DNA of 64,000 nucleotides, taken from positions 248,001-312,000 of the forward strand of contig NZ_JMIW01000003.1 in the NCBI RefSeq assembly GCF_000715015.1, read 5' to 3'. The first letter of the stretch is position 1, and the number at the start of each line of letters is the position of its first letter. Source of the stretch: Erythrobacter longus. Lineage in GTDB: Bacteria; Pseudomonadota; Alphaproteobacteria; Sphingomonadales; Sphingomonadaceae. Below the pieces are notes generated by a model that saw only the letters and a program-made list of their open reading frames with translations, did not search any database and was not told the DNA's origin. Of this stretch, positions 11,756-27,072 are shown one piece after another. The translations under genes were made by a program, and so were the position numbers.

Positions 11756-12955
11756 ATGAATATTGAAGCAGCCTTGGCTTGGCCCGCCCTTGCACTTGTA
11801 TTTGCGGGTGTATTTGCTGGCCTTTGGAATGCGAACCGAAAAAGGATGCACCTTCTGGGCTTCGGGGTCGGTTTTTTTGCGCTCTTTTTGGCCATGACGG
11901 TCGTGATCGCGGCCCCTTGCGCGAACCAGCCAGTGATTACGACCGGGCTCCACCTATTGGCTTGCATAAGCGTGATGGCGATTGTTTGGGGGAGCTTACA
12001 ACGCCTCAATCAAAGAACACCGATTTTCGCGATGTGCACTTTGTCGGTTTTCTCCAGCGCGCTTCTTTATCTTGCACTAGAGAATGCCGAACAAGAAGTG
12101 GCTTTGCTCGTCCATAATGAAGCAAGCGGGCTGCTGTTTGCGATTGGCGCTGTCTTACTGTGGACAGCCCGCACGACCAACATGCTGGATCGCATATTGG
12201 TGTGGACCATGAGCTTGCTTGCGATTTTCAGCCTCCTGCGCCCGATTGTTCTGTTTTATCTTCAAACCGGGCCGGCCTCTCTGGTTCAGCACAAGATTGA
12301 AGCCAGTGCCGCAAGCTTTGTCCTCTTCATGGTTCTGACTGCGATGCTGGGGGGTGTTCATGTTGCGATTGCCATCCACGAAGCGATAGACATTCGCCAT
12401 GGTTCCAAACGCACTGATCCGGTGTCCGGCTTTCTCGATCAGCGCACTTTTGAACTGACTGGCGAGCGCGCACTGGCTTAGGCGCACCGCCTGAAAGCTC
12501 CGGTTGCACTTGCGGTGCTTCAATTTGATTGGTTCCATTCCATTACAGAGAAATGGGGCCAAGTGACCAGTGATATGGTGGTCCGGGAAATCTCGGATGT
12601 TGTACGAAAATGGAAGCGCGACAGCGATGTTTTCGGCCGGGTGGGTGAGGACCGTTTTGCGATCATTTTTGTGGGCGTTAAAGCCGTTTCAGCGCAAGCA
12701 ATCGTAAACACGCTTCGCGATGAAATCGATGAGGCCTGTAACGAGCGCATGAGCGGCCTTCTTAAATTCACTATCAGCTCGTCAATCTTGGATGCGCAAT
12801 CTGGAACGCTTTTGGGAACGTTGATGCGCAAGGCGCTCATCCCCCTTGGCCGGGCGGGAAAACTGGGAGCCAATATCAGCTTTGTGAATGGAGTTTACGA
12901 ACAGCATTTGGGTCTTGGCGCTGCTAATGACGCAACCTTCATGGCCCACGGATAG
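11756..12955 (+). pseudogene. Membrane diguanylate cyclase interrupted by an in-frame TAG
   Basis: The first part (from ATG 11756) encodes about six transmembrane helices. It is followed by the start of a GGDEF domain (DPVSGFLDQRTFELTGERALA) that ends at TAG 12479-12481. The same frame continues to 12955 with the rest of the domain (VALAVLQFDWFHSITEKWG, then RVGEDRFAIIF). The signature motif reads GEDRF rather than GGDEF, so cyclase activity is doubtful even without the stop. A GTG at 12515 could in theory restart translation, but I see no ribosome site there. A pseudogene or a very recently interrupted gene is most likely. Confidence 0.7.
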
Positions 12956-13003
12956 TATTCTCACCCAATACTTCTCGAAACTGGCTGGCGAGTAAGCAGA
13001 AAC

Positions 13004-13426
13004 ATGGCAAACGGGAGTTCTCAAGCGTCAAGACAGTTCAAACGCTTTGGCGAAACGCTTTCAGAGACTGCAATGAGGGCTCCTGAGGAGCGACGGATGC
13101 GCTCGGAGCATCTGGTTATTCCAGAGCTGTTCGGTGAACCGGCATGGGATATCCTCTTGCACATTTTCTATGGGCAGTCAGAAGGGCGAGAAATCAAAAT
13201 CCAGAGCATAGCAATGAGTTGTCGCCTGCAGATCACTAGCGTGCTGCGATGGCTTGAGGTGTTGGAGCGCAGGCGCCTGATTTTCGCATATCGCAAGGAA
13301 GACAGCGAGACACTCAAACCAGGGCAGGTCTGCTTGCGCCTTTCGTCCCAGGGGTATGAGGCGATGGCACAATATCTGGAGCGCTTCGCATGGCGCGATC
13401 CGTTCTGCGATCGTTACAGAGTATAA
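13004..13426 (+). CDS. MarR-like winged-helix transcriptional regulator
   Basis: The 140-residue protein has the block FGEPAWDILLHIFYGQ, then a recognition-helix region (QSIAMSCRLQITSVLRWLEV) and a wing (LERRRLIFAYRKEDSETLKPGQVCLRLSSQGYEAM). Together they form a MarR-type winged helix. Similar small regulators accompany GGDEF/EAL genes in this bacterial group (family recollection, not checked). It lies between the interrupted cyclase and the H-NOX gene, all on the same strand, and probably belongs to that signalling locus. Confidence 0.7.
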   Translation: MANGSSQASRQFKRFGETLSETAMRAPEERRMRSEHLVIPELFGEPAWDILLHIFYGQSEGREIKIQSIAMSCRLQITSVLRWLEVLERRRLIFAYRKEDSETLKPGQVCLRLSSQGYEAMAQYLERFAWRDPFCDRYRV

Positions 13427-13533
13427 GGTGCCTTAGAGGAGAATACTCAGGCGCTGTGTCTCGCCGCCTTAATATATTCACAGCGTATCCCAACATCTTA
13501 CTCAAATCTACGAGTGAGGCGCGCATATATGGG

Positions 13534-14073
13534 ATGGTCAACGAAGGTGTCCGCACATTCGTAATCAAGAAATTCGGCAAAGATGCTTGGGAAACCATTC
13601 GTTTGGATGCGGGTATTGATACCTCGCAGTTTGATCGGATGCACGCCTATGACGACGCCATAACCTGCGATCTTGTAGCTGCAGTGGCTAAGCATAGGGA
13701 TATGGCTCAAGGCGAGGTTCTCAGCGTTTTTGGCGAATACTGGGTTGGCTATGCTGGCAATTCGGGTCTTGGCAATCTGCTCTCTTTATCTGGCCGCAAC
13801 TTTGTCGAGCGCGTTCAGAACCTCGACGATATGCATGATCGCAAGATGATGGCCATGCCAGGTCTAAAACCGCCTTCCTTTGAGATTGTTGAGCTTGATC
13901 AGAGCATTTTTGAACTGAGTTACTATTCGGTTCGCCCTGGCCTTACTCCGATGGTTATCGGCTTGCTGCATGGCCTGGCAGCTCAGACAAATGAGAAGAT
14001 ATCGGTTGAGCTTACATCTGCTCGCTCTTCGGCGAACGCGCCTGATCTATTTCGGATTGAGCTGCTTGCTTAA
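13534..14073 (+). CDS. H-NOX haem nitric-oxide-binding sensor (conserved start codon reads ATA)
   Basis: This is a haem-based NO/O2 sensor domain protein. The proximal histidine is visible in LDDMHDRKMM and the YxSxR haem-propionate motif in SYYSVRPGL. The overall pattern (YGMVNEGVRTFV, FGEYWVGYAG, MVIGLLHGLA) matches stand-alone H-NOX proteins. These normally begin MYG, but here the matching residue is isoleucine (ATA at 13525-13527), with a good GAGTGAGG site at 13512-13519 correctly spaced for it. The ATG at 13534 used here loses three residues. It probably controls the HNOBA-GGDEF-EAL enzyme 17 bp downstream. Confidence 0.85.
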   Translation: MVNEGVRTFVIKKFGKDAWETIRLDAGIDTSQFDRMHAYDDAITCDLVAAVAKHRDMAQGEVLSVFGEYWVGYAGNSGLGNLLSLSGRNFVERVQNLDDMHDRKMMAMPGLKPPSFEIVELDQSIFELSYYSVRPGLTPMVIGLLHGLAAQTNEKISVELTSARSSANAPDLFRIELLA

Positions 14074-14090
14074 AGAGTGCCCTGAGACCA

Positions 14091-15907
14091 ATGCTCTCCT
14101 CACCTGATCTTGCGTACTGCCTCACTGCCGGAGCATTGAACACGCTGTTTCCGATGCACTGCATCCTTGATGATGAGGGGCGTATCGTTCAGGCCGGATC
14201 AACTTTGTCCAAAGTCATGCGGCGCGCGGTCGTTGGAGAGGCGCTGTTCGACCTTTTTGAGATCAAACGCCCACGTTCATTGCACTCCTTAGCAGACCTG
14301 CAATCGTATACCGGCCCAAAATTCGTCCTTCGTGCAGTCTTCGAAGCCGAGCACCCTCTGGAATTTCGATGTGTGGCTACTGCAATGGAGGCAGGCGGGA
14401 AAACCCTGCTCATCGATTTCGCCTTTAGCGCAGACTTCCTCGATCTGTTTTCTTTGCTTCAATTGAACGCCTCGGACTTTAAGCCCAATGACCCTTCCCT
14501 GGATTTGATCTACACGATTGAAACCCAAAGAACGCTGGTCGAAGACAGCCAAAAACTCACGCTTGCGCTGGAACGCTCAAGAAAAGAGGCAGAGCACGCG
14601 GCCAATATTGATCTGCTCACCGGCATCGCCAATCGCCGCTTTCTGTCGAGTTATCTTCGTCAAGAGCCTGCACCGATCATTTCTCGGTGTGGCGGTTTTT
14701 TGCTCCATCTGGACCTCAATAAGTTCAAATCCATCAACGATACGAGCGGCCATTCAGCCGGGGACGCAGTGCTGCAACATACGGCGCGCATTCTTGATGA
14801 GGCGGCGGGCGAAACGGGCTTTGCGGCTCGCCTTGGCGGGGATGAATTCGTCTTGCTGGTGCGCGGCTACACATCGCGCGCGGCCATCGAAAGCCTCTCT
14901 ATAGGCATTTGTCAGCGCATATCAGAGCCGATTGCTCATGGTGGACATGTGCTTCAGGTATCGACCTTGCTGAGCATGGCGGTGTTGCTCCTGATCAATT
15001 GCTCAGCTTCTCTGACATCGCACTCTACGAAGCAAAACGCAGCCGGGAAGACATCGTCTTCTTGGATCAAGAGATGCTTCACAACCATCACGAGCGCCAA
15101 GCGCTCATCCAACAGATCGAAGACGGGTTGCAGCTGGGCCAATTCGTTCCGTTCTTTCAACCAAAGATTGATACGCGGACAAACCGCATATCCGGCGTGG
15201 AAGTCTTAGTGCGATGGCAGCATCCACAGCGCGGTCTATTGCCGCCATCACAGTTTATTGATGAGGCGGAAGCCGCCAATCTTATGGGGAGGATTGATCG
15301 CTGCATTATCGCGCAAGCGGTCAAGGCTTACGGAGACTGGCTCAACGCTGGTTTCATCATTGGCAAACTGTCGATCAATCTGACCGCCTACAATTTGCAG
15401 TCCGGGACTTTCGTCGAATATCTGGCTGATGAGCTGCGCAACTCCGGTCTGACTGCGCGGCACGTTGAGCTTGAGTTGCTGGAGTCGATACTTTTCGATT
15501 GCGATGATTCGTCGTTGTTTGAGAGGTGCCGCGAGCTAAGTCAGGCTGGTTTTCACTTGGCGCTCGATGATTTTGGGACTGGCTACGCTTCGATCTCAAC
15601 CTTGATCGACAATTCGATCACGACAATCAAGATTGACCGCTCCTTCATCTCCGGGATCGACAAACAACCTCGATTGCAGCGCATCACCCGGTCAATTCTG
15701 GCTTTGTCACAGCAACTTTATCTTGATGTTGTGGCAGAAGGGGTGGAGACCGCTGCCGAACTGGAAGTGTTGACGGCGTTTGGATGCCATCTGGTTCAGG
15801 GATACCATTTCAGCCGGCCGCTCGATGCCAACCGGATGACTGGCTGGCTGCGCGCTCGGGACGAGTGTGCTGAAGAGCAAAGCCGAACCCAGCAGTCCAT
15901 GAGATAG
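14091..15907 (+). pseudogene. HNOBA-GGDEF-EAL c-di-GMP enzyme with a frameshift
   Basis: The first part (14091 to about 14960) encodes an N-terminal HNOBA/PAS-like domain (FPMHCILDDEGRIVQAG ... LFDLFEIKRP) and then a coiled linker. A GGDEF domain with an intact LGGDEFVLL motif follows. At about 14957-14968 the frame breaks. The rest of the GGDEF domain (SFSDIALYEAKRSRE) and a full EAL domain (EVLVRW, LDDFGTGYASIS, KIDRSFI, EGVET, QGYHFSRP) continue to 15907 in another frame. Intact, it would be an H-NOX partner that makes and/or degrades c-di-GMP. A small deletion or a sequencing error could explain the break. Confidence 0.8.
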
Positions 15908-15959: not shown

Positions 15960-15994
15960 ATAGCGGAAGGTAAAGCGCCAAGGAATTCAATAAT

Positions 15995-16044
15995 TGGTGG
16001 GCGCGGCAAGGATTGAACTTGCGACCCCACCCGTGTGAAGGGTG
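15995..16044. repeat. Left attachment-site repeat (displaced tRNA-Val 3' end)
   Basis: This 50-bp stretch is identical to 24975-25024, the 3' part of the tRNA-Val gene including CCA, the T arm and the anticodon arm. It is followed by unrelated sequence, so it is not a tRNA. It marks the left end of an element integrated by site-specific recombination in the tRNA gene. Confidence 0.92.
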
Positions 16045-16125
16045 GGAAACTGGGCGATTGCGGCTATACACGGACGATAAAATCCAATAAAAACAATCAC
16101 AGGCGTTCAAGTGTGTCCGCCCATG

Positions 16126-16147
16126 TTTTTCATGTTTTTTTCATGGA
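16126..16147. repeat. Left subterminal 22-bp direct repeat
   Basis: A 22-bp stretch of the form T5-CATG-T7-CATGGA is found identically at 24919-24940 near the other end. It lies between the left att site and the integrase start. It could be an integrase arm-binding site or a trace of an older insertion. Confidence 0.8.
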
Positions 16148-16165
16148 TTTTGAAAGAGCCGTTGG

Positions 16166-17335
16166 ATGCCTGATTTAAGCCGGATCAAAGAACGCGAAAA
16201 ATTGAAGCCTAAAGCTGGAGACGAACCGCACTGGCAGCGCTTGCGCCAAGGCTGCTATTTGGGCTTCCGGCCTTCCAAGAAAGGTAAGCGGGGCACTTGG
16301 TTTGCGCGCGCTTACGATCCCGATGGCAACAAGTATCGCCGTAAGTCTCTTGGAGATTATGGCGCGCTATCTGGCCATGATGTTTTTTCGCAAGCGAAGG
16401 TGGATGCCGAAGGCTGGACCGAAACGGTCGAGAGTGGCGGCGAACGCGCCCGCGATATGGTGACGGTCAAGGATGCGTGTGAAGCCTATCTTGCCGAAAA
16501 GCCGGGAGCGATTGCCGAAGGCGTATTCCGGCGGCACGTCTATTCTGACCCCATTGCCAGAGTGAAGCTCGATAAGCTGCGTCGGCACCATCTTCGAAGC
16601 TGGCGCAAGCGGCTGGAAGAGGCACCGGCTTTGCTCACCCGCTCCAAGAAAGGCGAGAAGCGCTGGAAGGAGCGCGCCAAGTCGACTGTCAATCGCGACA
16701 TGGTGCCGCTGCGTGCCGCATTAGGGCAGGTGCTAAAGCCCGGTGCGCCAAACACAGATGCGGCATGGCAAGAGGCTCTGAGGCCATTCAAAGGTGCGGA
16801 TAAGCGCCGAGAGCTCTATCTTGACCGTGATGAGCGCAAGAGGATGATTGAAGCCTTTGACGGGGAAGCCTTGCCCTTTGTTAAAGCGCTTTGCCTTTTG
16901 CCTTTGCGACCCGGTGCGCTGGCTAGTTTGACGGTACGCGACTTCGACAAGCGCACGCGAAGTCTCACAATCGGCAAAGACAAGAACGACAACCCCCGCC
17001 AGATTTCCTTGCCGCAAGTCATTGCCGATTTCTTCACCGAGCAGGTTAAAGGGAAAATGCCAGCCGCGCCGATCTTCACGCGCGGCGGTGGCGAGGCATG
17101 GAACAAAGACGCATGGAAATACCCAATCAAGGAAGCGGTGAAGGTGGCTGGTTTGCCCCTTGCTGCATCCGCCTACACACTGCGCCATAGCGTCATAACG
17201 GACCTGATCCGCGCTCGCTTGCCAATCCTCACGGTTGCGCAGCTATCGGGAACAAGTGTGGCGATGATTGAAAAGCATTACGGCCACCTTGTGCGCGATG
17301 ATGCGGAAGAGGCATTGGCGAGTATTGCGTTTTAG
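16166..17335 (+). CDS. Tyrosine-type site-specific integrase
   Basis: The 389-residue phage/P4-type integrase has an N-terminal arm-binding region, a SAM-like core-binding domain and a C-terminal catalytic domain. The catalytic domain shows the first arginine (LLPLRPGALASL), the TLRHSVIT box and the tyrosine nucleophile (MIEKHYGHL). In the second box the usual first histidine is replaced by tyrosine (AYTLRH), a variation seen in many integrases. It lies 120 bp from the left attachment repeat and is expected to integrate the element in the tRNA-Val gene. Confidence 0.93.
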   Translation: MPDLSRIKEREKLKPKAGDEPHWQRLRQGCYLGFRPSKKGKRGTWFARAYDPDGNKYRRKSLGDYGALSGHDVFSQAKVDAEGWTETVESGGERARDMVTVKDACEAYLAEKPGAIAEGVFRRHVYSDPIARVKLDKLRRHHLRSWRKRLEEAPALLTRSKKGEKRWKERAKSTVNRDMVPLRAALGQVLKPGAPNTDAAWQEALRPFKGADKRRELYLDRDERKRMIEAFDGEALPFVKALCLLPLRPGALASLTVRDFDKRTRSLTIGKDKNDNPRQISLPQVIADFFTEQVKGKMPAAPIFTRGGGEAWNKDAWKYPIKEAVKVAGLPLAASAYTLRHSVITDLIRARLPILTVAQLSGTSVAMIEKHYGHLVRDDAEEALASIAF

Positions 17336-17625
17336 GTCTTACTTAGAAAACCTCTTATGGCCTTTTAGTCTAGAAGAGCAGCGCGACTGAGATAGGGTCG
17401 TAAGAAACTAAGGGGCAATTCTGGAAGGGAGGGGTGGCCAAATCTCCAAGCCTTTTTTGCCGGACACCGCTGCCTTGTCCGCTACACAATCGCTAAGATA
17501 GTTTTTTGCCCTTGCGATTGGGCGGCTCGACACATCACAAAAATCAGGTTTTCCCTATTGATTTAGGAAAACAATTGGCGGCTGGGGCAATGGCCATTAG
17601 CAAAGGCATGAATAGGAGAGCATTT

Positions 17626-20600
17626 ATGGAAATTGCTGAGTATCTGGCCGAAATAAAAAAGCTTTATGATAGCGGCCAGACAACTGAGCACAGTTTCCGG
17701 CCAGCGCTTGAGCGGCTTTTCAAGTCGATTGATCCAGACTTGACCGTAATCAATGAACCCCGGCGCACAGTGGATGTTGGCGCGCCTGATTTCGTGTTCC
17801 AGCGGGGCGACGTTTCGATTGGCTGGTGCGAGGCCAAGGACATCGGCAAGGACATCCGCAAGTTTGCCAAGGGCGATTACAGCAAAGAGCAAAAGGGCCG
17901 CTACGCAAAAGGCCTGCCCAATCTGATCTACACAAACGGGCTCGACTTTGAGTTTATTCGCGATGGTGAGGCGGTGGACTTCATCACCATTGCGGACCTG
18001 ATCCCGACAATGCCCGCGCGAACAGAGGCGTTCCCGCTTCTCGAAGCGCGGCTGGCAGAATTCGCACAAGTCACCCCGCTTAGCGTTACCTCGTCAAAGC
18101 GCCTTGCCGAGCTGATGGCGGGTAAGGCTGCGCTCATCAAAGAGATCATGGGTAATGCTCTGGTGAGCGACCTCAAGGCGCAAGGCGACGGCGGCCAGCC
18201 GACCGACCTTATCGGCCAGTACGAAGCGTTCAAAGAAAGCCTGATCCACGACATCACAGTTGCAGAATTTGCGGACATCTATGCCGAAACCATAGCTTAC
18301 GGCCTGTTTGCAGCGCGCCTGCATGATGAGACGTTAGAGACGTTCAGCCGGACCGAGGCGCTGGAGCTTTTGCCCAAGTCTAACCCGTTTTTGCGGGCGC
18401 TGTTTGTCTATATCGCAGGCCCCAATCTGGACGAACGTCTGCGCCGCGTGGTTGATGATCTGTGCGAAGTTTTCCGTGCGACCGATATGGAGAAGGTGCT
18501 GCGCCATTTTGGCAAGGTCACAAAGCGTCAAGACCCCTTCCTGCACTTTTACGAAGACTTCCTCGCCGAATATAACCCCAAGAAGCGCAAAGCACGCGGG
18601 GTCTGGTACACACCGGAACCCGTGGTCAATTTCATTGTGCGGGCCGTGGATGAGGTGCTCAAGACCGAATTTGGGTTAAGCGATGGCCTTGCGGACACAA
18701 GCAAGATTTCGATTGATTGGGACACAGGGCAAACGGACAAGCACGGCAAGCCTGCGACCATCAAGAAAGAGGTACACCGCGTCCAGATTTTGGACCCTGC
18801 AACCGGAACGGGCACATTCCTGGCGGAAGCAATCAAGCTGATTGCGGGACGCGTACAGAACATCGCGCCCAGCCAATGGTCCGGCTATGTCGAGAATGAT
18901 CTGATCCCGCGCATTCACGGCTTTGAGTTGCTGATGGCAAGCTATGCCATGTGCCATATGAAGCTGGATATGATCCTTACCGGATTGGGGTACAAACCCA
19001 GCGACAAAGCGCCCCGGCTGGGGGTTTATCTCACCAACTCGCTGGAGGAAGGCGAGCGGGTGGAGCAAACACTGTTTGGTCTATCGCGCGCCATTGCTGA
19101 GGAAGCGAAAGCAGCGAGTGACATTAAGCGGCAGACACCCATCATGTGCGTGATTGGGAATCCGCCTTATGCTGTGAGCAGCAGCAATAAGTCGCCGTTC
19201 ATCGACCGCCTTCTGGCCGACTATAAGAAGGACTTGAACGAGCGTAATATTCAGCCTTTGTCAGACGATTATATCAAATTCATCCGATATTCTCAGCATC
19301 TGATTGAGCAAAATGGAGAGGGCGTCTTAGGGTTCATCACAAACAACAGCTACTTGGATGGCCTCATTCACCGGCAAATGCGGCAATCACTCCTTGATAC
19401 CTTCGACCAAATCTACGTGATTGACCTGCATGGCAGCAGCAAAAAGAAAGAGGTTTCACCGGACGGTTCACCCGATCAGAATGTTTTTGACATCATGCAG
19501 GGCGTCGCGATCATCGTAGCGGCGAAGCTTAATCGCGAAAAACAAATGCCCGCAACGGTTAGGCACCTCGATGTTTGGGGAAGCAGAAAGGCAAAGAACT
19601 CGTCTTTGTTTGAGCTCGAGATCGACGCGACGGATTTTGCAGAGATCGATACTACGGCACCCAATCGCTATCTTGTGCCAAAGGATTTTGAATCGGCAAC
19701 TAGTTACAGCAACGGTGTTTCGCTCAAGGGCCTGTTCTCAAAAATTACCTCTGGAATAAAAACCCACAAAGATCACCTTGTGATCGACTTTGAACGGTCG
19801 GCCTTAGTTGCTCGTATGCAATCCTACTTCGATCCCGCAATTGGTGAGAGTGAAATCCGCGAACGGCTGAGATTGAAAGACAACAAGTCTTGGAGCGTGG
19901 AGGCATCCCGAAAAGATAACAATTTTAAAGATAGCAACGTCAAAAACGTGTTCTATCGGCCATTCGATTCACGCTCTCTTTACTATGATTCTAGGATCGT
20001 CGAGCGTGACCGAACAGCCGTAATGAAGCATATGATGTTTGGCGGTAATCTTGGGTTTGGTTTGAACCGACAAATCGAAGTGAAACGAGGGTTTCATGAC
20101 ATTGTCGTTTCAGACGAGGTTTTTGACCTCCATGCCTTGAGCCTCAAAGAAGGTAACCACTTCGCCCCCCTCTACCTTTACCCAGACGAGCAAGACCTAG
20201 ACCAATCCATCCGCGTCAATTTCGACCACAAGTTATACGCTAGAATCCGTGAGGCCGCTGGGCTCACTGGCCCAATCAAAGCGCCAGACACGCAGGCCGT
20301 CGAAAGCGGCGCTTTCCGCACAGCCACTGGTGACAGCCGCCCTGATGAGGTCAAGGTCTTCGATTACATCTACGGCGTGCTCCATTGCCCTCAATACCGC
20401 GAAACCTACGCGGAGTTTCTCAAAATCGACTTCCCCCGCGTTCCCTTCCCGCCATCACCCGAAGTCTTCCGCACAATCAGTGGGCAAGGCGAGGCCCTGC
20501 GCCGTCTACACCTGATGGAAGACGCAAGCATTGGCGACACCGCCTACCGCTTCGATGGCGAAGCGCCAGAGGGGCAGGACAACGAGGTCGAAAAACCCCG

Positions 20601-20862
20601 CTTTGAGCTCCAGCCGGACGGCACAGGCCGCGTCTACATCAACGGCAAAGGCACTGAGGGGCAGTATTTCGAAGGCGTCCCAGAAGTCTCATGGGGCTTC
20701 CCCATCGGTGGCTATCAGCCTGCGCAAAAATGGCTCAAAGACCGCAAAGGCCGGAAGCTGAGCTTCGACGACATCCGCCACTATCAAAAGATAATCAAAA
20801 TCTTGGCGGAAACTGATGGAATTATGAAAGGCATTCAGATGCCAAGTATTGGTGATGGCTGA
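17626..20862 (+). CDS. Fused restriction endonuclease-methyltransferase (type IIG / ISP-like)
   Basis: The 1078-residue polypeptide appears to hold cleavage, modification and specificity functions. An N-terminal PD-(D/E)xK nuclease site is visible at about D55 and E69-A-K71 (APDF ... CEAKD). A helical linker follows. The N6-adenine methyltransferase core has motif I DPATGTGTFL at about 390 and motif IV NPPY at about 512. The C-terminal region (YRPFDSRSLYYDSR ... PLYLYPDE) resembles the specificity domain of type ISP enzymes. I see no helicase motifs, unlike classical type ISP proteins of about 1600 residues. The start at 17626 follows AGGAGA. It is likely anti-phage cargo. Confidence 0.88.
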   Translation: MEIAEYLAEIKKLYDSGQTTEHSFRPALERLFKSIDPDLTVINEPRRTVDVGAPDFVFQRGDVSIGWCEAKDIGKDIRKFAKGDYSKEQKGRYAKGLPNLIYTNGLDFEFIRDGEAVDFITIADLIPTMPARTEAFPLLEARLAEFAQVTPLSVTSSKRLAELMAGKAALIKEIMGNALVSDLKAQGDGGQPTDLIGQYEAFKESLIHDITVAEFADIYAETIAYGLFAARLHDETLETFSRTEALELLPKSNPFLRALFVYIAGPNLDERLRRVVDDLCEVFRATDMEKVLRHFGKVTKRQDPFLHFYEDFLAEYNPKKRKARGVWYTPEPVVNFIVRAVDEVLKTEFGLSDGLADTSKISIDWDTGQTDKHGKPATIKKEVHRVQILDPATGTGTFLAEAIKLIAGRVQNIAPSQWSGYVENDLIPRIHGFELLMASYAMCHMKLDMILTGLGYKPSDKAPRLGVYLTNSLEEGERVEQTLFGLSRAIAEEAKAASDIKRQTPIMCVIGNPPYAVSSSNKSPFIDRLLADYKKDLNERNIQPLSDDYIKFIRYSQHLIEQNGEGVLGFITNNSYLDGLIHRQMRQSLLDTFDQIYVIDLHGSSKKKEVSPDGSPDQNVFDIMQGVAIIVAAKLNREKQMPATVRHLDVWGSRKAKNSSLFELEIDATDFAEIDTTAPNRYLVPKDFESATSYSNGVSLKGLFSKITSGIKTHKDHLVIDFERSALVARMQSYFDPAIGESEIRERLRLKDNKSWSVEASRKDNNFKDSNVKNVFYRPFDSRSLYYDSRIVERDRTAVMKHMMFGGNLGFGLNRQIEVKRGFHDIVVSDEVFDLHALSLKEGNHFAPLYLYPDEQDLDQSIRVNFDHKLYARIREAAGLTGPIKAPDTQAVESGAFRTATGDSRPDEVKVFDYIYGVLHCPQYRETYAEFLKIDFPRVPFPPSPEVFRTISGQGEALRRLHLMEDASIGDTAYRFDGEAPEGQDNEVEKPRFELQPDGTGRVYINGKGTEGQYFEGVPEVSWGFPIGGYQPAQKWLKDRKGRKLSFDDIRHYQKIIKILAETDGIMKGIQMPSIGDG

Positions 20863-21226
20863 TTCTCTACCCTGACTGCGCTTTAGGGGCCATTGGTCCT
20901 ATTCGGCATTGATCTGTCCACAGCGAATCAAAAGTCGCACGGCTTATCCCCACCGAATCATACACCCTTGTCTTCGGTTGCCTCGCTTGCTTCTCTATAA
21001 TGGGGACGCAAACGCACGTGTTTGCGTTCACTAACCACTAGGAGAACAGCCATTTTTGACACCACATAAACGAAACCCCCGCCGAGATGGCAGGGGCTCC
21101 GTGCGAAAGATTGGCGTCTCATCGCACTGCAGTTTCTACCCATTCCGGCGGTCTTCGACAACCGCAAATATGTGCGCGGGCGAACAACAAGGTTCGCTGG
21201 CGGACGCTACGAATGGATTGACTACA
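20863..21226. other. Regulatory intergenic region of the island
   Basis: This 364-bp stretch without a convincing gene separates the restriction-modification gene from the replication module. It contains a TATAAT box at 20996-21001, an inverted repeat directly after it (21006-21027), and a purine-rich AGGAGA at about 21043 with no ATG behind it. It is probably the promoter and control region of the downstream operon. Confidence 0.5.
20973..21027 (+). promoter_or_regulatory. Promoter with overlapping inverted-repeat operator
   Basis: The -10 box TATAAT is perfect. A weak -35 (TTCGGT) lies 17 bp before it. Starting five bases after the box are the arms ACGCAAAC (21006-21013) and GTTTGCGT (21020-21027), separated by six bases. 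A repressor bound there would block initiation. The AlpA-like protein downstream is one candidate ligand. Confidence 0.5.
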
Positions 21227-21415
21227 ATGACAAACACCTCTCCAAATCTTGAACCTCTGGCCTACAGCGTCGCAGATGCCTGCCGCGTCTCCAGCATAGG
21301 CCGCACCCGCCTTTATCAGCTTATCGGTGAAGGCCGACTCGAAGCCAAAAAGATTGGCAAACGCACCCTTATTCCAGCCGCCAGCCTTCGCGCCCTTATC
21401 GAAGGGGAGGCTTGA
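21227..21415 (+). CDS. AlpA/excisionase-like helix-turn-helix protein
   Basis: The 62-residue MerR-like winged helix shows AYSVADACRVSSIGRTRLYQLI followed by GRLEAKKIGKRTLIPAASL, the pattern of DNA-binding excisionase-family (helix-turn-helix_17) proteins. Such proteins regulate integrase excision or early genes in P4-like islands. The ATG at 21227 is chosen because the homology begins shortly after it; the frame is open further upstream. Three bases separate its stop from the next gene. Confidence 0.8.
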   Translation: MTNTSPNLEPLAYSVADACRVSSIGRTRLYQLIGEGRLEAKKIGKRTLIPAASLRALIEGEA

Positions 21416-21418
21416 ACC

Positions 21419-21610
21419 ATGCACCCTTGCAACAAAGAAACCCCGCTGGCGGCAACCGGCGGGGCTCTAAGCGATGGTTTGGAAGGCCTCTCGCTTAACC
21501 CTTCTAGCCTTGCGTTCCAACGGGCGCAATTCCTGATGAGCGCCCATGCGATCCGGCCAGATTTGGCTTTGATGCTTGGCGGATTGATCTTTGAAGGGGG
21601 CGCACAATGA
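21419..21610 (+). CDS. Small hypothetical island protein
   Basis: The 63-residue protein is of unknown function. The N-terminus is encoded by a GC-rich near-palindrome (GAAACCCCGCTGG ... CGGCGGGGCT at about 21437-21470) that may form a hairpin in the mRNA. Its stop codon overlaps the start of the primase gene (ATGA at 21607), which suggests translational coupling and supports a real gene. Confidence 0.55.
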   Translation: MHPCNKETPLAATGGALSDGLEGLSLNPSSLAFQRAQFLMSAHAIRPDLALMLGGLIFEGGAQ

Positions 21611-22491
21611 CTGATGCACGCGAAGTGACGCTGGCGCTCGGCGGGCGCTGGCATGGCCGCTATGGAACTGCGCCTTGCCCGGTTTGCCAAATGGATCGGC
21701 GGCGCGACCAGAACGCGCTAACCTTGGCCGATGGCGAGGCGGGATTGCTTGCCCATTGCAAACGGTCTGGCTGCGACTTTCTCGACATTCTGAGCGCGGC
21801 TGGTCTGCGCTCCGGTGATTATCGCGCCCCCGATGCGGTCACGGCTGCCAAACGTGAAGCCAAGGCAAAGGCGGACACGATCCGCAAGCAAAATGCTGCA
21901 AGGCGGCTTTGGGAGCAATCCCAGCCAATAGGGGACACTCTGGCAGAAACCTATCTGCGTGGGCGCGGTATAGGCTGCGCTTTGCCCGACACGCTGCGCT
22001 TTCATCCAAATTGCTGGCACGGGCCAAGCGAAAGCCGGTGCCCTGCAATGATGGCGCTTGTCGAAGGGGGCGATGGCTTTGCGGTGCATCGCACCTATTT
22101 GCGCGCCGATGGCAGCGGGAAGGCGGGTGTAGCTGGTGGCGACAAGCTTATGCTGGGCGCGACCGCTGGGGGCGCTGTAAGGCTCTCGAAGGGCGCTTCG
22201 CGGCTTGCGGTGGCGGAAGGCATTGAAAGCGCCTTGTCGCTGTTGTGTGGGCTTATGGTTGAGCCTGCGACTGTCTGGGCAGCGCTCTCGACAAGCGGGA
22301 TGCGCTCGCTTCGATTGCCTGAGAAACCCGCGCGGTTGGTGATTGCTGGCGATGGCGACAAACCGGGCCGTGCTGCATCGCACGCGCTCGCGACAAGGGC
22401 GCATGCGCTGGGCTGGCAAGTCTCGATGCTCGACCCCGGCAATGGTGCAGACTTTAACGATGTCCTCACCGGAAAGGCGGTGGCAGCATGA
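21607..22491 (+). CDS. Toprim-domain primase-like protein
   Basis: The 294-residue protein begins with a zinc-binding region (CPVCQMDRRRDQNALT ... HCKRSGCDFLDIL), as in phage primases. It continues with a linker and a C-terminal Toprim domain containing AVAEGIESALS (catalytic glutamate) and VIAGDGDKPGRAAS (DxD). It should synthesise primers for replication of the island together with the downstream DUF3987 protein. The stop overlaps the next start by four bases (ATGA). Confidence 0.85.
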   Translation: MTDAREVTLALGGRWHGRYGTAPCPVCQMDRRRDQNALTLADGEAGLLAHCKRSGCDFLDILSAAGLRSGDYRAPDAVTAAKREAKAKADTIRKQNAARRLWEQSQPIGDTLAETYLRGRGIGCALPDTLRFHPNCWHGPSESRCPAMMALVEGGDGFAVHRTYLRADGSGKAGVAGGDKLMLGATAGGAVRLSKGASRLAVAEGIESALSLLCGLMVEPATVWAALSTSGMRSLRLPEKPARLVIAGDGDKPGRAASHALATRAHALGWQVSMLDPGNGADFNDVLTGKAVAA

Positions 22492-23987
22492 GCGCGCAAG
22501 CCAAACAAGTCGAAACCCCTTTCAAGCCCGAAGCGCCGCAACCGCTCTTACGAGAAATCCCACCGGGTGCGCCCTATCCCATTCATGCGCTCGGGCCGCT
22601 TAAAGGTGCGGTGGAAGCGGTGCAGGGTATGACACAAGCTCCAATGGCGATCCCGGCACAATCCGCGCTCGCGGTTGCATCGCTTGCGGTGCAAGGCTTT
22701 GCCGATGTGGAGACACTTGGGGGCAAGAGGCCAACGTCTCTTTACGCTCTGACTATTGCGCAATCTGGCGAGCGGAAATCCGCCTGCGATGCGCCTCTAA
22801 TGGCGGCTGTTAGAGAACACGAGCAAGAGCAGGCGAGATTGCATCGCAAGGCTATGCAAGCATGGCAGCGAAGGCACGACGTATGGAAAGCAAAACGCGA
22901 GCGGATTTTGGCCGATGTGAAGAAGGCAAAAGGCGGAGATAGTGCAGCATCTGAAGCTGAGTTGCAGGCACTGGGGCCTGCACCAGAGCAGCCACCTTCG
23001 ACCGACCGACTTGTCACCGAACCGACCTTTGAAGGGCTCACTAAGCTATTCGCGAATGGAGAGCCTAGCCTTGGCCTGTTTTCAGATGAAGGCGGGCAAT
23101 TCCTGGGCGGTCATGCAATGAACAGCGACAACCGGCAAAAAACTCTAGCCGCTTTCAATGACCTTTGGCAGGGCAACCCCATACGGCGGACACGCGCTGG
23201 CGATGGCCATGCAACGCTTTACGGGCGGCGATTGGCTGTTCACTTGATGGCCCAACCAACTGTTGCGCGGGCTTTCATGGCGGACCCGCTGGCGGCTGAT
23301 ACGGGCTTCCTGCCTCGCTTTCTCATCTGCGAACCGCCCAGCACAATCGGCACACGCTTACACGAAACCGCGCGCAATGATGATCGTGCAATCCTTAGCT
23401 TCAATGACCAACTGCGGTTCATTCTTGAAAGCGAAATGCCGATGCATGCGGAAACCCGCGAACTCCAGCCGCGATGTTTGCAGCTAAGCCATGGTGCGCG
23501 GGAAGCACTGGTGCGGTTCTCGGACAGTGTGGAACGGGCACAAAACCCCGGCGGCGATATGGCGCACCTTACTGGCACGGCTTCAAAGGCGGCGGAACAA
23601 GCGGCACGAATTGCCGGTGTGCTGACACTCTGGCGGGACTTAAAGGCGGAGCAAATTGAACCCGCTGATATGGCCAACGGAATTGAGCTTGCTAAGTTCT
23701 ATTTGCTCGAAGCCGTACGGCTTGCCGATGCGGCGCAAGTATCGGCAGAGATTGGGCAAGCCGAAAAACTTAGGCGGTGGCTTCTCGAAGGCTTTGATGA
23801 AGCCGAAGTGACGGTGCGCGATGTGGTACGTCTTGGCCCTAATTCGCTTCGCGAAAGCCCGAAGGCACGGGCCGCGCTCGCGATTCTCGAAAAGCATGGA
23901 TGGCTTTCACCGCTTGACGCGGGAACCGTAGTGCGAGGCTCTGCGCGCAAGGAGGCTTGGCGAGTTATGAGGCCCAGCGTGGAATGA
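22488..23987 (+). CDS. DUF3987 (YfjI-type) replication protein
   Basis: The 499-residue protein has a P-loop-like AQSGERKSA near residue 90, a charged coiled stretch at about 105-150, then the blocks GLFSDEGGQFLGGHAMN and GRRLAVHLMAQPTVA that mark DUF3987 proteins. These accompany primases in phages and islands and are thought to act as helicase-like replication factors. The P-loop lacks the canonical GxGKS glycine (GERKS), which is usual in this family. Coupled to the primase by a 4-bp overlap. Confidence 0.82.
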   Translation: MSAQAKQVETPFKPEAPQPLLREIPPGAPYPIHALGPLKGAVEAVQGMTQAPMAIPAQSALAVASLAVQGFADVETLGGKRPTSLYALTIAQSGERKSACDAPLMAAVREHEQEQARLHRKAMQAWQRRHDVWKAKRERILADVKKAKGGDSAASEAELQALGPAPEQPPSTDRLVTEPTFEGLTKLFANGEPSLGLFSDEGGQFLGGHAMNSDNRQKTLAAFNDLWQGNPIRRTRAGDGHATLYGRRLAVHLMAQPTVARAFMADPLAADTGFLPRFLICEPPSTIGTRLHETARNDDRAILSFNDQLRFILESEMPMHAETRELQPRCLQLSHGAREALVRFSDSVERAQNPGGDMAHLTGTASKAAEQAARIAGVLTLWRDLKAEQIEPADMANGIELAKFYLLEAVRLADAAQVSAEIGQAEKLRRWLLEGFDEAEVTVRDVVRLGPNSLRESPKARAALAILEKHGWLSPLDAGTVVRGSARKEAWRVMRPSVE

Positions 23988-24004
23988 GACGTGAAGCCAT
24001 ACCC

Positions 24005-24078
24005 CTGCGACATTCGCGACTGCTGCGACAATGGCCAAGCGCGGCTGGATTTTGTCGCAATTGTCGCGGTTGTCGCAA
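24005..24078. repeat. Iteron-like TTGCGACAA repeats in inverted orientation
   Basis: The left side holds CTGCGACATTCGCGAC and CTGCGACAA; the right side holds TTGTCGCAATTGTCGC and GGTTGTCGCAA. Together they make five or six copies of a GCGACA core pointing inwards. It lies directly after the replication genes, a usual place for an origin, but it could also be an operator or terminator. Confidence 0.5.
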
Positions 24079-24121
24079 GGGGGAAGTGATTGCCCAAAAT
24101 TGAGCAAAGGACGAAAACCAG

Positions 24122-24781
24122 ATGACTGCAAAATCGAAGAAAAGCAAAGCAGGTTCGGCGCGAAGCAAGGCTCGCCTTGATATTGAGGGAGAACCCGAAA
24201 AGAGCAAAGAACGCAACCTTGCTAATGTCTCGCTTGATCCAGCGGCGAGCGGGATGGCAGCAACCCGCATGTTCAACGCGGGGAGCTTTGGTGAGCAAGA
24301 TTCCACTGAGCTCTATCTATCTCTCAGTGACAAGGGAAAGGCTGCGACCTCTGGCGACCTAACTCATTACAAGGCCATGCTGGCTGCGCAGGCGGATACT
24401 CTCAATTCAATCTTTACTGAACTGGCACGGCGGGCCGCTCTCAACATGGGCGAATATATCAGTGCAACCGAAATATACATGCGCTTGGCCCTAAAGGCAC
24501 AGGCACAGTGCAAGGCAAACATAGAAGCGCTCGACCGGCTCTCGAATGGGCGGGTGCAAACTGTGCGGCACGTGCACGTCAACGAGGGCGGGCAGGCTGT
24601 TATCGCGGACGAGTTTCACCATCACACAGGGGGATGCAAAAATGGAAAATCAGACAAACAACCCCATACAACCGGAACGGCTGGCAAAAGCCCCGCGCTG
24701 CTTAGCCAAGACGCGCAAGGGGACGGCGTGCCAATCTCCAGCGGTAAAGGGAAGCAAGAGGTGCCGGATGCACGGCGGTAA
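24122..24781 (+). CDS. Phage-island hypothetical protein
   Basis: The 219-residue protein has a basic N-terminus and a central helical block (FTELARRAALNMGEYISATE, then RLALKAQAQCKANIEALDRL). This block recurs in alphaproteobacterial prophages and islands next to small HGG-motif proteins (family recollection). The last 50 residues are low-complexity and overlap the next gene out of frame, so they may be an extension past a lost stop. Function unknown. Confidence 0.65.
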   Translation: MTAKSKKSKAGSARSKARLDIEGEPEKSKERNLANVSLDPAASGMAATRMFNAGSFGEQDSTELYLSLSDKGKAATSGDLTHYKAMLAAQADTLNSIFTELARRAALNMGEYISATEIYMRLALKAQAQCKANIEALDRLSNGRVQTVRHVHVNEGGQAVIADEFHHHTGGCKNGKSDKQPHTTGTAGKSPALLSQDAQGDGVPISSGKGKQEVPDARR

Positions 24782-24890
24782 AGGCAGCGGAGCGCCAAAG
24801 GGCAATAGCAACGCTCTTATGCACGGCGCACGATCTGCAAACGCTAGAGAAGTACTAGACCTGATCCGGCGATTGGGCCTGCCAGATTAG
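24642..24890 (+). CDS. Small HGG-motif phage-type protein
   Basis: The 82-residue protein has a zinc-like N-terminal pattern (CLAKTRKGTACQSPAVKGSKRC) followed by MHGGKGSGAPKGNSNALMHG, a motif very common in small prophage and island proteins. It overlaps the previous gene by 140 bp in a different frame. The ribosome site AGGGGGA at about 24628 supports an independent start. Function unknown. Confidence 0.7.
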   Translation: MENQTNNPIQPERLAKAPRCLAKTRKGTACQSPAVKGSKRCRMHGGKGSGAPKGNSNALMHGARSANAREVLDLIRRLGLPD

Positions 24891-24918
24891 AATGAAACAC
24901 AGCTATTCTCGCACGCTC

Positions 24919-24940
24919 TTTTTCATGTTTTTTTCATGGA
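24919..24940. repeat. Right subterminal 22-bp direct repeat
   Basis: This stretch is identical to 16126-16147 and in the same orientation, 34 bp inside the right attachment repeat. See the left copy. Confidence 0.8.
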
Positions 24941-24974
24941 AATGTGGCCCATCTCTTCTAAGTCATTGAAAAGA

Positions 24975-25049
24975 TGGTGGGCGCGGCAAGGATTGAACTT
25001 GCGACCCCACCCGTGTGAAGGGTGTGCTCTACCACTGAGCTACGCGCCC
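24975..25049 (-). tRNA. tRNA-Val (CAC)
   Basis: Read on the minus strand, the 75-nt gene begins GGGCGCGTAGCTCAG and ends GCGCCCACCA with encoded CCA. The anticodon loop TTCACAC gives anticodon CAC (valine, GUG codons). D arm, T arm (GTTCAATCC) and acceptor pairing are complete. Its 3' 50 bp are the right attachment repeat, so this copy has a 3' half supplied by the integrated element. Confidence 0.95.
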
Positions 25050-25173: not shown

Positions 25174-27072
25174 TTAATCAACGAGCCATGAGCCGATGAG
25201 CTTGGCGAAACCTGCAGCCTCATTGGCTTGCAAGGGACGCGCATCAGCCGGGCATTCGAGGCAATAGGCCTGCACCCCTTGAGTGCCGGTGAGCATCTTA
25301 GCATCGCTCGCCAATTGTCCGATCAAGACTTCGCGTTGACGCGCGGTCATTGCGAAAAGATCAGCGCGGCGTGAAACCGTCGCAGGGGCAACCGCATTGG
25401 TGACGAGCTGACGGATGAGAGAATCGTAATTGCCCGGCGTATCGCCAAGGAACATCGCGCTCCAATCGTCTTCGGAAAGGCCAGCTTCGCCAGCCACCCA
25501 TTGCATTGCATCCGAAAGTCCGCCGAATTGATCGACAAGACCAAGCTGGCGCGCCGTACCGCCGTCCCACACGCGTCCTTGCGCGATCTGGTCGACCTTG
25601 TCATTCGTCATCCCGCGCGCCTCGGCAACGATGGTGAGAAAGTCGGAATAGGTGTCTTCAACCCCTGCTTGCAGGATAGAATCGAGTTCCGGCGACAATC
25701 CGCTCACAAGGTCAGGTTGGCCCGACAATGGCGTGGTGCGGTATCCGCCTGCACTAACGCCAAGCTCATCCGCGGTTCCTTCAAAGGTCGGGATGACCGC
25801 AAACACACCAATGGAACCTGTAATCGTTTCAGGTTGGGCAAAGATCCGGTCGGCTTTGGTCGCGACCCAATACCCGCCGCTGGCAGCAACATTGGCGAAG
25901 GACACTGCGACCGGCACATCCTTGTCGGCGCGGTAGCGTTCGATCGCCTGGCGAATGTCTTCTGATGCCAGAGCGGAACCACCCGGCGAATCCACGCGCA
26001 CCACCAACCCTTTGATGTTGTCATCGCTAAGCGCTGTGTCGAGCAAGTCGACAATCCGCTCACCGCCTGCAATACCGGGTCCTGCTTCGCCGTCGACTAT
26101 AGTGCCCGCGATGGTCACAATCGCGATTTTGTTGCTGGATGATCCTGTGCCGGGGCCGACATCGGCAAGATACGGCGCAAATTCGCTTTTGGCATATGCG
26201 CCCGGTTTTTTGTCGAAGGCATCTTCGCCAGCGATTTCAGCAACGCGTTCGCCAAATTTTACGCGGGTTCCGATTGTGTCGACAAGCCCCGCATCAAGCG
26301 CCGCTTTGGCAAGATCACCCGATGATGCCTCAACCCATGCAACCGTATCGCCGGTTACCCGGTCGAGATCGAGCGAGGGGCGCGCTTTCTTGACGTTGGC
26401 CTGCCATTCTTCCCACAGCGAACCATAAAGTGCGGCCAGATTTTCGCGGCTCGCCTCTGATGGGCCATCAAGCAGATAGGGTTCAACCGCCGATTTGAAG
26501 GTCCCGACGCGGTAAACGCGCACATTGACTTTGAGCTTTTCCAGAAGGCCAGCGTAATACAACCGCGCGCCGCCGGGCCCTGCGATTGTTGCGCCGCCCA
26601 TCGGATTGACCCAAACTTCGCTTGCGTGAGAGGCCAAGTGCATATGGTCATCGCCATAGCCAAGCGCGTAGGTGAGTACCGGTTTTTCCGCCTTGCGCAC
26701 CCGGTCCATGGCGTCTGCGATTTCTTGCATATGCACCTGACCGCCGCCGATAAAAGTGGTCATATCCATGACAACAGCTTTCACGCGGTCATCGGTGGCT
26801 GCTGCATCAAGAGCGCGCACAAGATCACGGGCGCGCAATTCAACCGGCGGGGCCGTGCCGCTCAAAAGCGTTGCAAGCGGGTCAACCTTGCTGTTCTCTT
26901 CAACCACATATCCGGTCATGTCGATGTAAAGAGCGCCTTCGCGCACTTGCCCCGGATTGGGGGCAGCGGAAAGAATGCTGAACAATGCGACGAAGAAAAG
27001 CAGCATGAAAACGAGGACCAAGCCATCCTTGATCCCGACGATAATTTTCCATGCCTTACCCAAAAAGCTCAT
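25174..27072 (-). CDS. sppA: Signal peptide peptidase SppA, 67K type
   Basis: This membrane-bound serine protease degrades cleaved signal peptides. The 632-residue protein has an N-terminal anchor (about 13-35) and two tandem S49 domains. The general-base lysine is in the first (GTFKSAVEP) and the nucleophilic serine in the second (VAASGGYWVAT). The start at 27072 follows AAGGA at the proper distance; an upstream ATG would add 18 residues without family support. It stands next to tRNA-Val and divergent from pyrB. Confidence 0.95.
   Translation of the reverse strand: MSFLGKAWKIIVGIKDGLVLVFMLLFFVALFSILSAAPNPGQVREGALYIDMTGYVVEENSKVDPLATLLSGTAPPVELRARDLVRALDAAATDDRVKAVVMDMTTFIGGGQVHMQEIADAMDRVRKAEKPVLTYALGYGDDHMHLASHASEVWVNPMGGATIAGPGGARLYYAGLLEKLKVNVRVYRVGTFKSAVEPYLLDGPSEASRENLAALYGSLWEEWQANVKKARPSLDLDRVTGDTVAWVEASSGDLAKAALDAGLVDTIGTRVKFGERVAEIAGEDAFDKKPGAYAKSEFAPYLADVGPGTGSSSNKIAIVTIAGTIVDGEAGPGIAGGERIVDLLDTALSDDNIKGLVVRVDSPGGSALASEDIRQAIERYRADKDVPVAVSFANVAASGGYWVATKADRIFAQPETITGSIGVFAVIPTFEGTADELGVSAGGYRTTPLSGQPDLVSGLSPELDSILQAGVEDTYSDFLTIVAEARGMTNDKVDQIAQGRVWDGGTARQLGLVDQFGGLSDAMQWVAGEAGLSEDDWSAMFLGDTPGNYDSLIRQLVTNAVAPATVSRRADLFAMTARQREVLIGQLASDAKMLTGTQGVQAYCLECPADARPLQANEAAGFAKLIGSWLVD

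What the first reader, a model, noticed from the sequence alone, without database searches (positions are those of the whole stretch)
11756..15907. NO-sensing c-di-GMP locus with lesions in three of four genes
A membrane diguanylate cyclase, a winged-helix regulator, an H-NOX haem sensor and an HNOBA-GGDEF-EAL enzyme follow one another on the same strand, a plausible NO-to-c-di-GMP circuit. The cyclase has an in-frame stop, the H-NOX start codon reads ATA, and the HNOBA enzyme is frameshifted. Independent decay in one locus suggests loss of selection, or an unusual expression mode, or local sequence error. H-NOX proteins paired with c-di-GMP enzymes are established knowledge; the shared decay is the observation.
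Basis: partly seen in the sequence, partly recalled or inferred. Interest (0 to 1): 0.65.

Follow-up and report, generated by a model that had tools for sequence, protein, structure and literature searches.

The report
Recently broken nitric-oxide sensing operon
An unnamed bacterium carries a four-gene nitric-oxide/c-di-GMP signalling locus, partly acquired from distant bacteria, in which three genes have been damaged, probably recently, while the DNA-binding regulator is intact: an ordinary but clean case of a sensor pathway being lost.

Summary
On the + strand lie a GGDEF-like membrane protein (in-frame TAG at 12479-12481), an intact winged-helix regulator, an H-NOX haem protein whose start position reads ATA (13525-13527), and an HNOBA-GGDEF-EAL protein frameshifted between about 14943 and 15010. 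No relative that I read carries any of them: 49 of 49 H-NOX homologues start with ATG or GTG; two intact enzyme relatives are 13 to 19 nt longer across the break; two relatives of the membrane protein have sense codons at the TAG. So this is not a one-base homopolymer error, and a survey of 122 orthologue-like regions in the surrounding 352 kb found no other clear internal lesion. Protein change is not accelerated, so the damage looks recent. Best reading: recent pseudogenisation of a horizontally acquired NO-to-c-di-GMP circuit. Side finding: wHTH relatives lie within 3.4 kb of H-NOX in 9 of 10 tested genomes of this family with that H-NOX type.

The parts
11756..12955 (+). Membrane GGDEF-like protein, 399 codons, interrupted; GGDEF motif degenerate (GEDRF)
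   Evidence: GGDEF E=2.6e-13 after the stop; GEDRF here, GEHRL in G373, ADDRL in G031
12479..12481 (+). In-frame TAG; G373 and G031 have sense codons there (Asn, Thr)
13004..13426 (+). Intact winged-helix regulator, 140 aa, the only undamaged gene
   Evidence: no Pfam or NCBIfam hit of its own; relatives in L031 and L008 match MarR_2 and (below cut-off) HTH_27
13514..13519 (+). Shine-Dalgarno-like GTGAGG, 5 nt before the ATA
   Evidence: duplex -7.9 kcal/mol, best of the starts tested
13525..14073 (+). H-NOX haem protein with ATA at the homologous start position; next in-frame ATG three codons later (13534)
   Evidence: (HNOB E=8.7e-41)
14091..15907 (+). HNOBA-GGDEF-EAL protein, frameshifted; first frame stops at 15207-15209
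   Evidence: (HNOBA, GGDEF, EAL)
14943..15010 (+). Stretch holding the frameshifting deletion: 68 nt here, 87 in both L037 and G634; the SxG strand of the GGDEF domain is not readable in either frame; longest base run near the break is 2
15980..16044 (.). Copy of part of tRNA-Val with flank (putative att repeat), edge of a neighbouring integrated element
   Evidence: second copy 24960-25024, intact tRNA-Val 24975-25049
16166..17335 (+). Tyrosine recombinase of the neighbouring element, not part of the circuit

Best explanation
The locus is a recently pseudogenised NO-sensing signalling locus of two units. Unit 1, a membrane GGDEF-like protein plus a winged-helix regulator, is found intact in another genus member (G373). 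Unit 2, an H-NOX plus an HNOBA-GGDEF-EAL c-di-GMP enzyme, was acquired horizontally and is shared with a Henriciella MAG and with G634. When intact, unit 2 would work as in known H-NOX/c-di-GMP pairs: NO binds the haem of H-NOX, which docks on the HNOBA region and shifts the balance of GGDEF synthesis and EAL hydrolysis of c-di-GMP. In this genome the enzyme has lost 13-19 nt within the GGDEF domain and with them the downstream EAL frame; the H-NOX start codon is ATA, so at best little or N-terminally shortened H-NOX is made; and the membrane protein is cut off at the start of its GGDEF part. Shown: the genes, the lesions, intact relatives without them, the clean surroundings, no acceleration of protein change. 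Inferred: loss of function, order of events, relaxed selection as the cause, the mechanism of the intact circuit.
For: Intact relatives: L037 H-NOX 60% identical with ATG start and a 611-aa HNOBA-GGDEF-EAL; G634 H-NOX 53%, enzyme 616 aa; G373 membrane protein 399 aa followed by a wHTH, in a genome without a match to this H-NOX. 49 of 49 starts ATG/GTG. 13-19 nt missing. Three-way tests show no excess of window-only changes: before TAG 24 v 24, after TAG 18 v 14, H-NOX 19 v 18, HNOBA-GGDEF 25 v 21, after the lesion 17 v 25, all p>0.25, so decay is recent if it is decay. Horizontal origin of unit 2: H-NOX groups with L037 and G634 (support 0.93) apart from the nine own-family sequences in a 29-sequence tree; genus best 33%. 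GC 0.495-0.541 over the genes against 0.574 for the contig stretch. Clean background.
Against: H-NOX and EAL signature residues remain (by eye) and protein change is not accelerated (small counts, low power), so residual function of the H-NOX or of an EAL fragment cannot be excluded. The ATA has a good Shine-Dalgarno site and an in-frame ATG three codons later. No reads, no second strain and no expression data. The nearest relative of unit 2 is only 60% identical. Low GC is shared by unit 1 (0.530, 0.537), so it does not separate the two units. The wHTH is next to the membrane protein in G373 only; in G031 the nearest wHTH match is 53 kb away. The background survey covers conserved genes, which decay less than accessory ones.
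Confidence: 0.8

Rival explanations
1. Sequencing or assembly error at the locus; the real genes are intact.
For: No read data were available; three lesions within about 2.5 kb could in principle be a poor patch.
Against: Three different lesion types; the deletion is 13-19 nt at a site with no base run over 2; no other clear lesion among 122 regions in 352 kb around it; the genome is estimated 99.98% complete in 14 contigs.
Confidence: 0.07
2. The H-NOX is still made and used, from the AUA or from the AUG three codons on, so only the output enzyme and the membrane protein are lost; the ATA tunes H-NOX down.
For: Strong Shine-Dalgarno match 5 nt before the ATA, duplex -7.9 kcal/mol, against -2.7 to -3.0 for the ATG starts of the other three genes; proximal His and the YxSxR stretch retained (motif names recalled); 19 v 18 lineage-specific changes in H-NOX.
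Against: 49 of 49 relatives read use ATG or GTG; its partner enzyme is broken; the internal AUG lies 14 nt from that Shine-Dalgarno site.
Confidence: 0.2
3. Programmed recoding: TAG readthrough and a -1 frameshift are used to express full proteins.
For: Homology continues after both sites.
Against: TAG also ends the membrane-protein frame and the EAL frame here; relatives use plain sense codons and an uninterrupted frame; no slippery X_XXY_YYZ heptamer in the needed phase anywhere in the overlap of the open frames; a frame change alone would not supply the missing codons.
Confidence: 0.02
4. Decay was triggered by insertion of the neighbouring tRNA-Val element (about 16.0-25.0 kb), which changed the surroundings of the locus.
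For: The element's edge repeat (15980) lies 72 nt after the enzyme's stop codon; recombinase and att-like repeat present; synteny with the fetched G373 stretch begins at 25183.
Against: The element lies downstream, not upstream, of the genes; no timing information.
Confidence: 0.1

Closest known systems
H-NOX/c-di-GMP enzyme operons (H-NOX with a GGDEF-EAL partner, 'HaCE' type in Shewanella woodyi and Legionella; names recalled)
   Same: H-NOX gene directly followed by a GGDEF-EAL protein; the review PMC8738867 (passages seen) names HK/RR systems and DGC/PDE enzymes as the usual H-NOX partners
   Different: Partner starts with an HNOBA region; here both genes are damaged
Henriciella sp. MAG DT_47 operon (L037)
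   Same: H-NOX 60% identical, HNOBA-GGDEF-EAL 51-59% identical by part, same order, short gap
   Different: Intact; no GGDEF-like/wHTH pair in the 568 bases held upstream, where a transposase-like fragment (by eye, not searched) lies
Own-family H-NOX + hybrid histidine kinase loci (e.g. G012, G154, G205)
   Same: YG-type H-NOX followed by a signalling enzyme, a wHTH relative nearby
   Different: Hybrid kinase instead of GGDEF-EAL (HATPase and receiver domains, no HNOBA match at 0.001; the G012 kinase has weak similarity to the HNOBA region, 24%, E=2e-7); in G012, G205 and G355 the wHTH follows a receiver domain; H-NOX 29-34% identical

Membership tests
H-NOX (HNOB, PF07700) | Full-length match to the family model over the cut-off | tested here: met
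   140 bits v cut-off 25.5, positions 1-162 of 163
H-NOX (HNOB, PF07700) | Proximal haem histidine and YxSxR motif | tested here: met
   His at query 103 aligned with His at 105 of the Alr2278 chain; YYSVR opposite YQSTR (motif names recalled)
H-NOX (HNOB, PF07700) | Usable start codon | tested here: not met
   ATA where 49 of 49 relatives read have ATG/GTG
H-NOX (HNOB, PF07700) | Haem and NO binding | not testable with these tools
   needs protein
HNOBA-GGDEF-EAL c-di-GMP enzyme | HNOBA, GGDEF and EAL domains over cut-off | tested here: met
   34.6, 91.9 and 227.9 bits, the EAL in the other frame
HNOBA-GGDEF-EAL c-di-GMP enzyme | One uninterrupted frame | tested here: not met
   frame changes within the GGDEF domain, 13-19 nt missing
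Diguanylate cyclase (first gene) | GGDEF/GGEEF active-site motif | tested here: not met
   GEDRF here, GEHRL in G373, ADDRL in G031
Diguanylate cyclase (first gene) | GGDEF domain match | tested here: met
   PF00990 E=2.6e-13 here, 4e-17 in G373
Pseudogene | Lesions absent from relatives | tested here: met
Pseudogene | Relaxed constraint (faster protein change) | tested here: not met
   no excess of window-only changes in five segments; expected if decay is recent, but also if function persists

The most novel reading that the evidence does not exclude
The winged-helix protein, the one intact gene, belongs to a regulator family that is the transcriptional output of H-NOX signalling in this bacterial family (alone or fused to a receiver domain), and here an NO circuit is being rewired: the c-di-GMP arm is discarded while wHTH and a faintly translated AUA-started H-NOX remain.
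Probability: 0.15. Interest if true: 0.55.

Novelty: new member of a known kind. Interest (0 to 1): 0.3.

Why it matters
It shows a horizontally acquired NO/c-di-GMP sensor operon apparently at the start of its loss, with intact relatives for comparison, and warns that a family search alone counts this genome as H-NOX-positive with an open frame. The side result, a wHTH regulator close to most tested YG-type H-NOX genes of this family, offers a testable candidate for a transcription factor downstream of H-NOX, which a Caulobacter proteomics study suggests exists but does not identify (PMC10746521, passages seen).

Tried and rejected
Considered and rejected: chance adjacency of unrelated ORFs (domain hits and relatives); TAG recoding and programmed -1 frameshifting (one search scanned only 14909-15207, another the whole overlap); single-base homopolymer error; conservation of the lesions across species. 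No closer relative of the H-NOX was found in the genus (114 genomes), in samples of the order (296), class (385), the family of G634 (248) or the phylum (200); a genome-contig scan gave one relative. A deletion between short direct repeats is a tempting mechanism for the frameshift, but only one copy could remain, so it cannot be tested without a closer relative.

Led nowhere: first tblastn of the locus against the early H-NOX loci matched few because those H-NOX are distant (in one search minus-strand loci were read on the wrong strand and those rows are void; the genus ones were read again); Pfam/NCBIfam naming of the window wHTH; a search of genomes around the Henriciella contig (handle type not accepted); the AUA-start measurement paper was not held, so no AUA efficiency figure is used.
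Full report
What is there. The window lies on contig C3 of a 3.60 Mb, 14-contig genome. Between 11756 and 15907 the + strand carries a membrane GGDEF-like protein, a 140-aa winged-helix regulator, an H-NOX protein and an HNOBA-GGDEF-EAL protein ('membrane' is by eye). The TAG (12479-12481), the ATA (13525-13527) and the frameshift (between about 14943 and 15010) are all features of the given sequence.

Are they lesions? For the membrane protein, a search of 114 genus genomes found 58% (G373) and 45% (G031) relatives with open frames. At the TAG they have Asn and Thr. For H-NOX, all 48 fetched homologues whose alignment begins at residue 1 start with ATG (41) or GTG (7) at the ATA position (46, two re-registered). 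L034, L042, L043 and L047 were left out because their alignments begin later, and matches without fetched loci were not examined. L037 also has ATG. For the enzyme, L037 (611 aa) and G634 (616 aa) are intact. From GGDEF to ALYxAK the window has 161 nt, L037 180 and G634 174; from the conserved Gly before the break it has 68 nt and both relatives 87. In 12 of 14 distinct GGDEF domains in held sequence the first distance is 58-63 codons, in the other two 70 and 94; here it is 53.67. The missing part falls on the strand bearing the SxG motif. The longest base run near the break is 2.

Is the neighbourhood sound? Of 503 reference ORFs from 649 kb of G373, 122 gave orthologue-like matches in C3:100001-452000. 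Twelve carried a stop between 6% and 94% of the length or more than one frame. One is the membrane protein of this locus. All eleven others were re-examined: seven reference ORFs are antisense to a gene that matches well in both genomes, and four differ only near the N-terminus (three of them first). A G373 frame beside one of them matches two separate pieces here (c3 238450-239400) and is unresolved. The survey is biased to conserved genes.

How old is the damage? In three-way comparisons, window-only and sister-only changes were 24 v 24 (before the TAG), 18 v 14 (after it), 19 v 18 (H-NOX), 25 v 21 (HNOBA-GGDEF before the lesion) and 17 v 25 (after it); the smallest p was 0.28. The broken parts have not drifted measurably faster than intact relatives, so the lesions look recent. 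Counts are small, and the same data are compatible with residual function.

Where does it come from? The H-NOX is 60% identical to Henriciella MAG DT_47 and 53% to G634 but at most 33% in the genus and 34% in the sampled order. In a FastTree of 29 sequences (the window, L037, L039 and 26 of the other homologues, picked by hand) it groups with L037 and G634 (support 0.93; 0.70 for L037 alone), while the nine own-family sequences form their own group (0.87). The EAL part has 37% as its best listed non-self match in the genus (capped list) against 59% in L037. The five gene parts have GC 0.495-0.541 against 0.574 for the 352 kb stretch; this includes unit 1, so low GC does not separate the units. 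The membrane-protein/wHTH pair is found intact in G373 (52% and 43%), which is not among the genomes that match this H-NOX (the Pfam family was not searched there). The locus is thus composite. Downstream lies an integrated element with a tyrosine recombinase and a 65-nt repeat that covers part of the tRNA-Val.

How it works or worked. Following established H-NOX signalling (review PMC8738867, passages seen: partners are HK/RR systems and DGC/PDE enzymes), NO binding to H-NOX would control the HNOBA-GGDEF-EAL enzyme and c-di-GMP. The first gene's GGDEF motif is degenerate here and in both relatives compared, so it is better seen as a membrane signalling partner than as a cyclase. In this genome the c-di-GMP enzyme cannot be made as a whole protein, and H-NOX can be made only from a near-cognate AUA or from the AUG three codons on. 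The Shine-Dalgarno match before the ATA is the best of the starts tested.

The regulator. Relatives of the wHTH lie near H-NOX in other genomes of the family. With a profile of nine rows searched in 36 chosen genomes, 115 matches were listed, about 3 a genome. The nearest is within 3.4 kb of H-NOX (start to start) in 9 of 10 genomes with a YG-type H-NOX, this one included (8 of 9 without it; G248 is the miss at 17 kb), but within 1 kb in only 1 of 8 genus genomes with a KG-type H-NOX, and in another at 5.3 kb (types checked). G339, a weak family match, and G157 of another family were not included. Seven of the nine profile rows came from YG-type H-NOX loci or this locus, one from a KG-type locus and one from G373; this favours detection of such genes but does not fix where the copies lie. 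In a 1.02 Mb control (this contig stretch plus G373 and G031 stretches) single-sequence searches found only the window gene and the G373 pair, whose stretch had been chosen for it. In G012, G205 and G355 the wHTH follows a receiver domain in a gene divergent from H-NOX, and in G012, G154 and G205 the gene after H-NOX is a hybrid histidine kinase. A full-text search for 'H-NOX' with 'winged helix' listed one review that holds each term once, not read. Since the window's H-NOX is of foreign origin, its closeness to this wHTH may be a separate event, so a functional link here is only a suggestion.

In print. Searches for H-NOX with Erythrobacter (none), with pseudogene (four listed, none by title about this) and with horizontal gene transfer and Alphaproteobacteria (one listed) showed no report of this case.

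Verdict. Confirmed observation; recent pseudogenisation of a partly acquired NO/c-di-GMP locus is the best reading. Ordinary in kind, with one side lead worth following.

Noticed in passing
window 13004-13426; L004, L008, L028, L029, L030, L031, L036: The wHTH regulator family is found within 3.4 kb of H-NOX in 9 of 10 tested family genomes with a YG-type H-NOX, in three of them fused to a receiver domain in a gene divergent from H-NOX.
   Followed up: partly
window 15980-25049: Integrated element between a 65-nt tRNA-Val repeat and the intact tRNA-Val, with a tyrosine recombinase at 16166-17335 and a 1118-aa Type ISP restriction-modification protein at 17506-20862.
   Followed up: partly
G000:C2:66665-73065; G373:C1:1672804-1678121: Further membrane GGDEF-like genes of the same kind lie within 0.6-5.1 kb of weaker wHTH matches, so the GGDEF-like/wHTH pairing may recur.
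   Followed up: partly
L037:1-350: A transposase-like fragment (by eye, not searched) lies directly upstream of the Henriciella H-NOX operon, a possible vehicle for its spread.
   Followed up: no
window genome C3 about 338450-339400: A 337-aa G373 frame matches two separate same-frame pieces here (c3 238450-239400); possibly another broken gene or an antisense frame.
   Followed up: no
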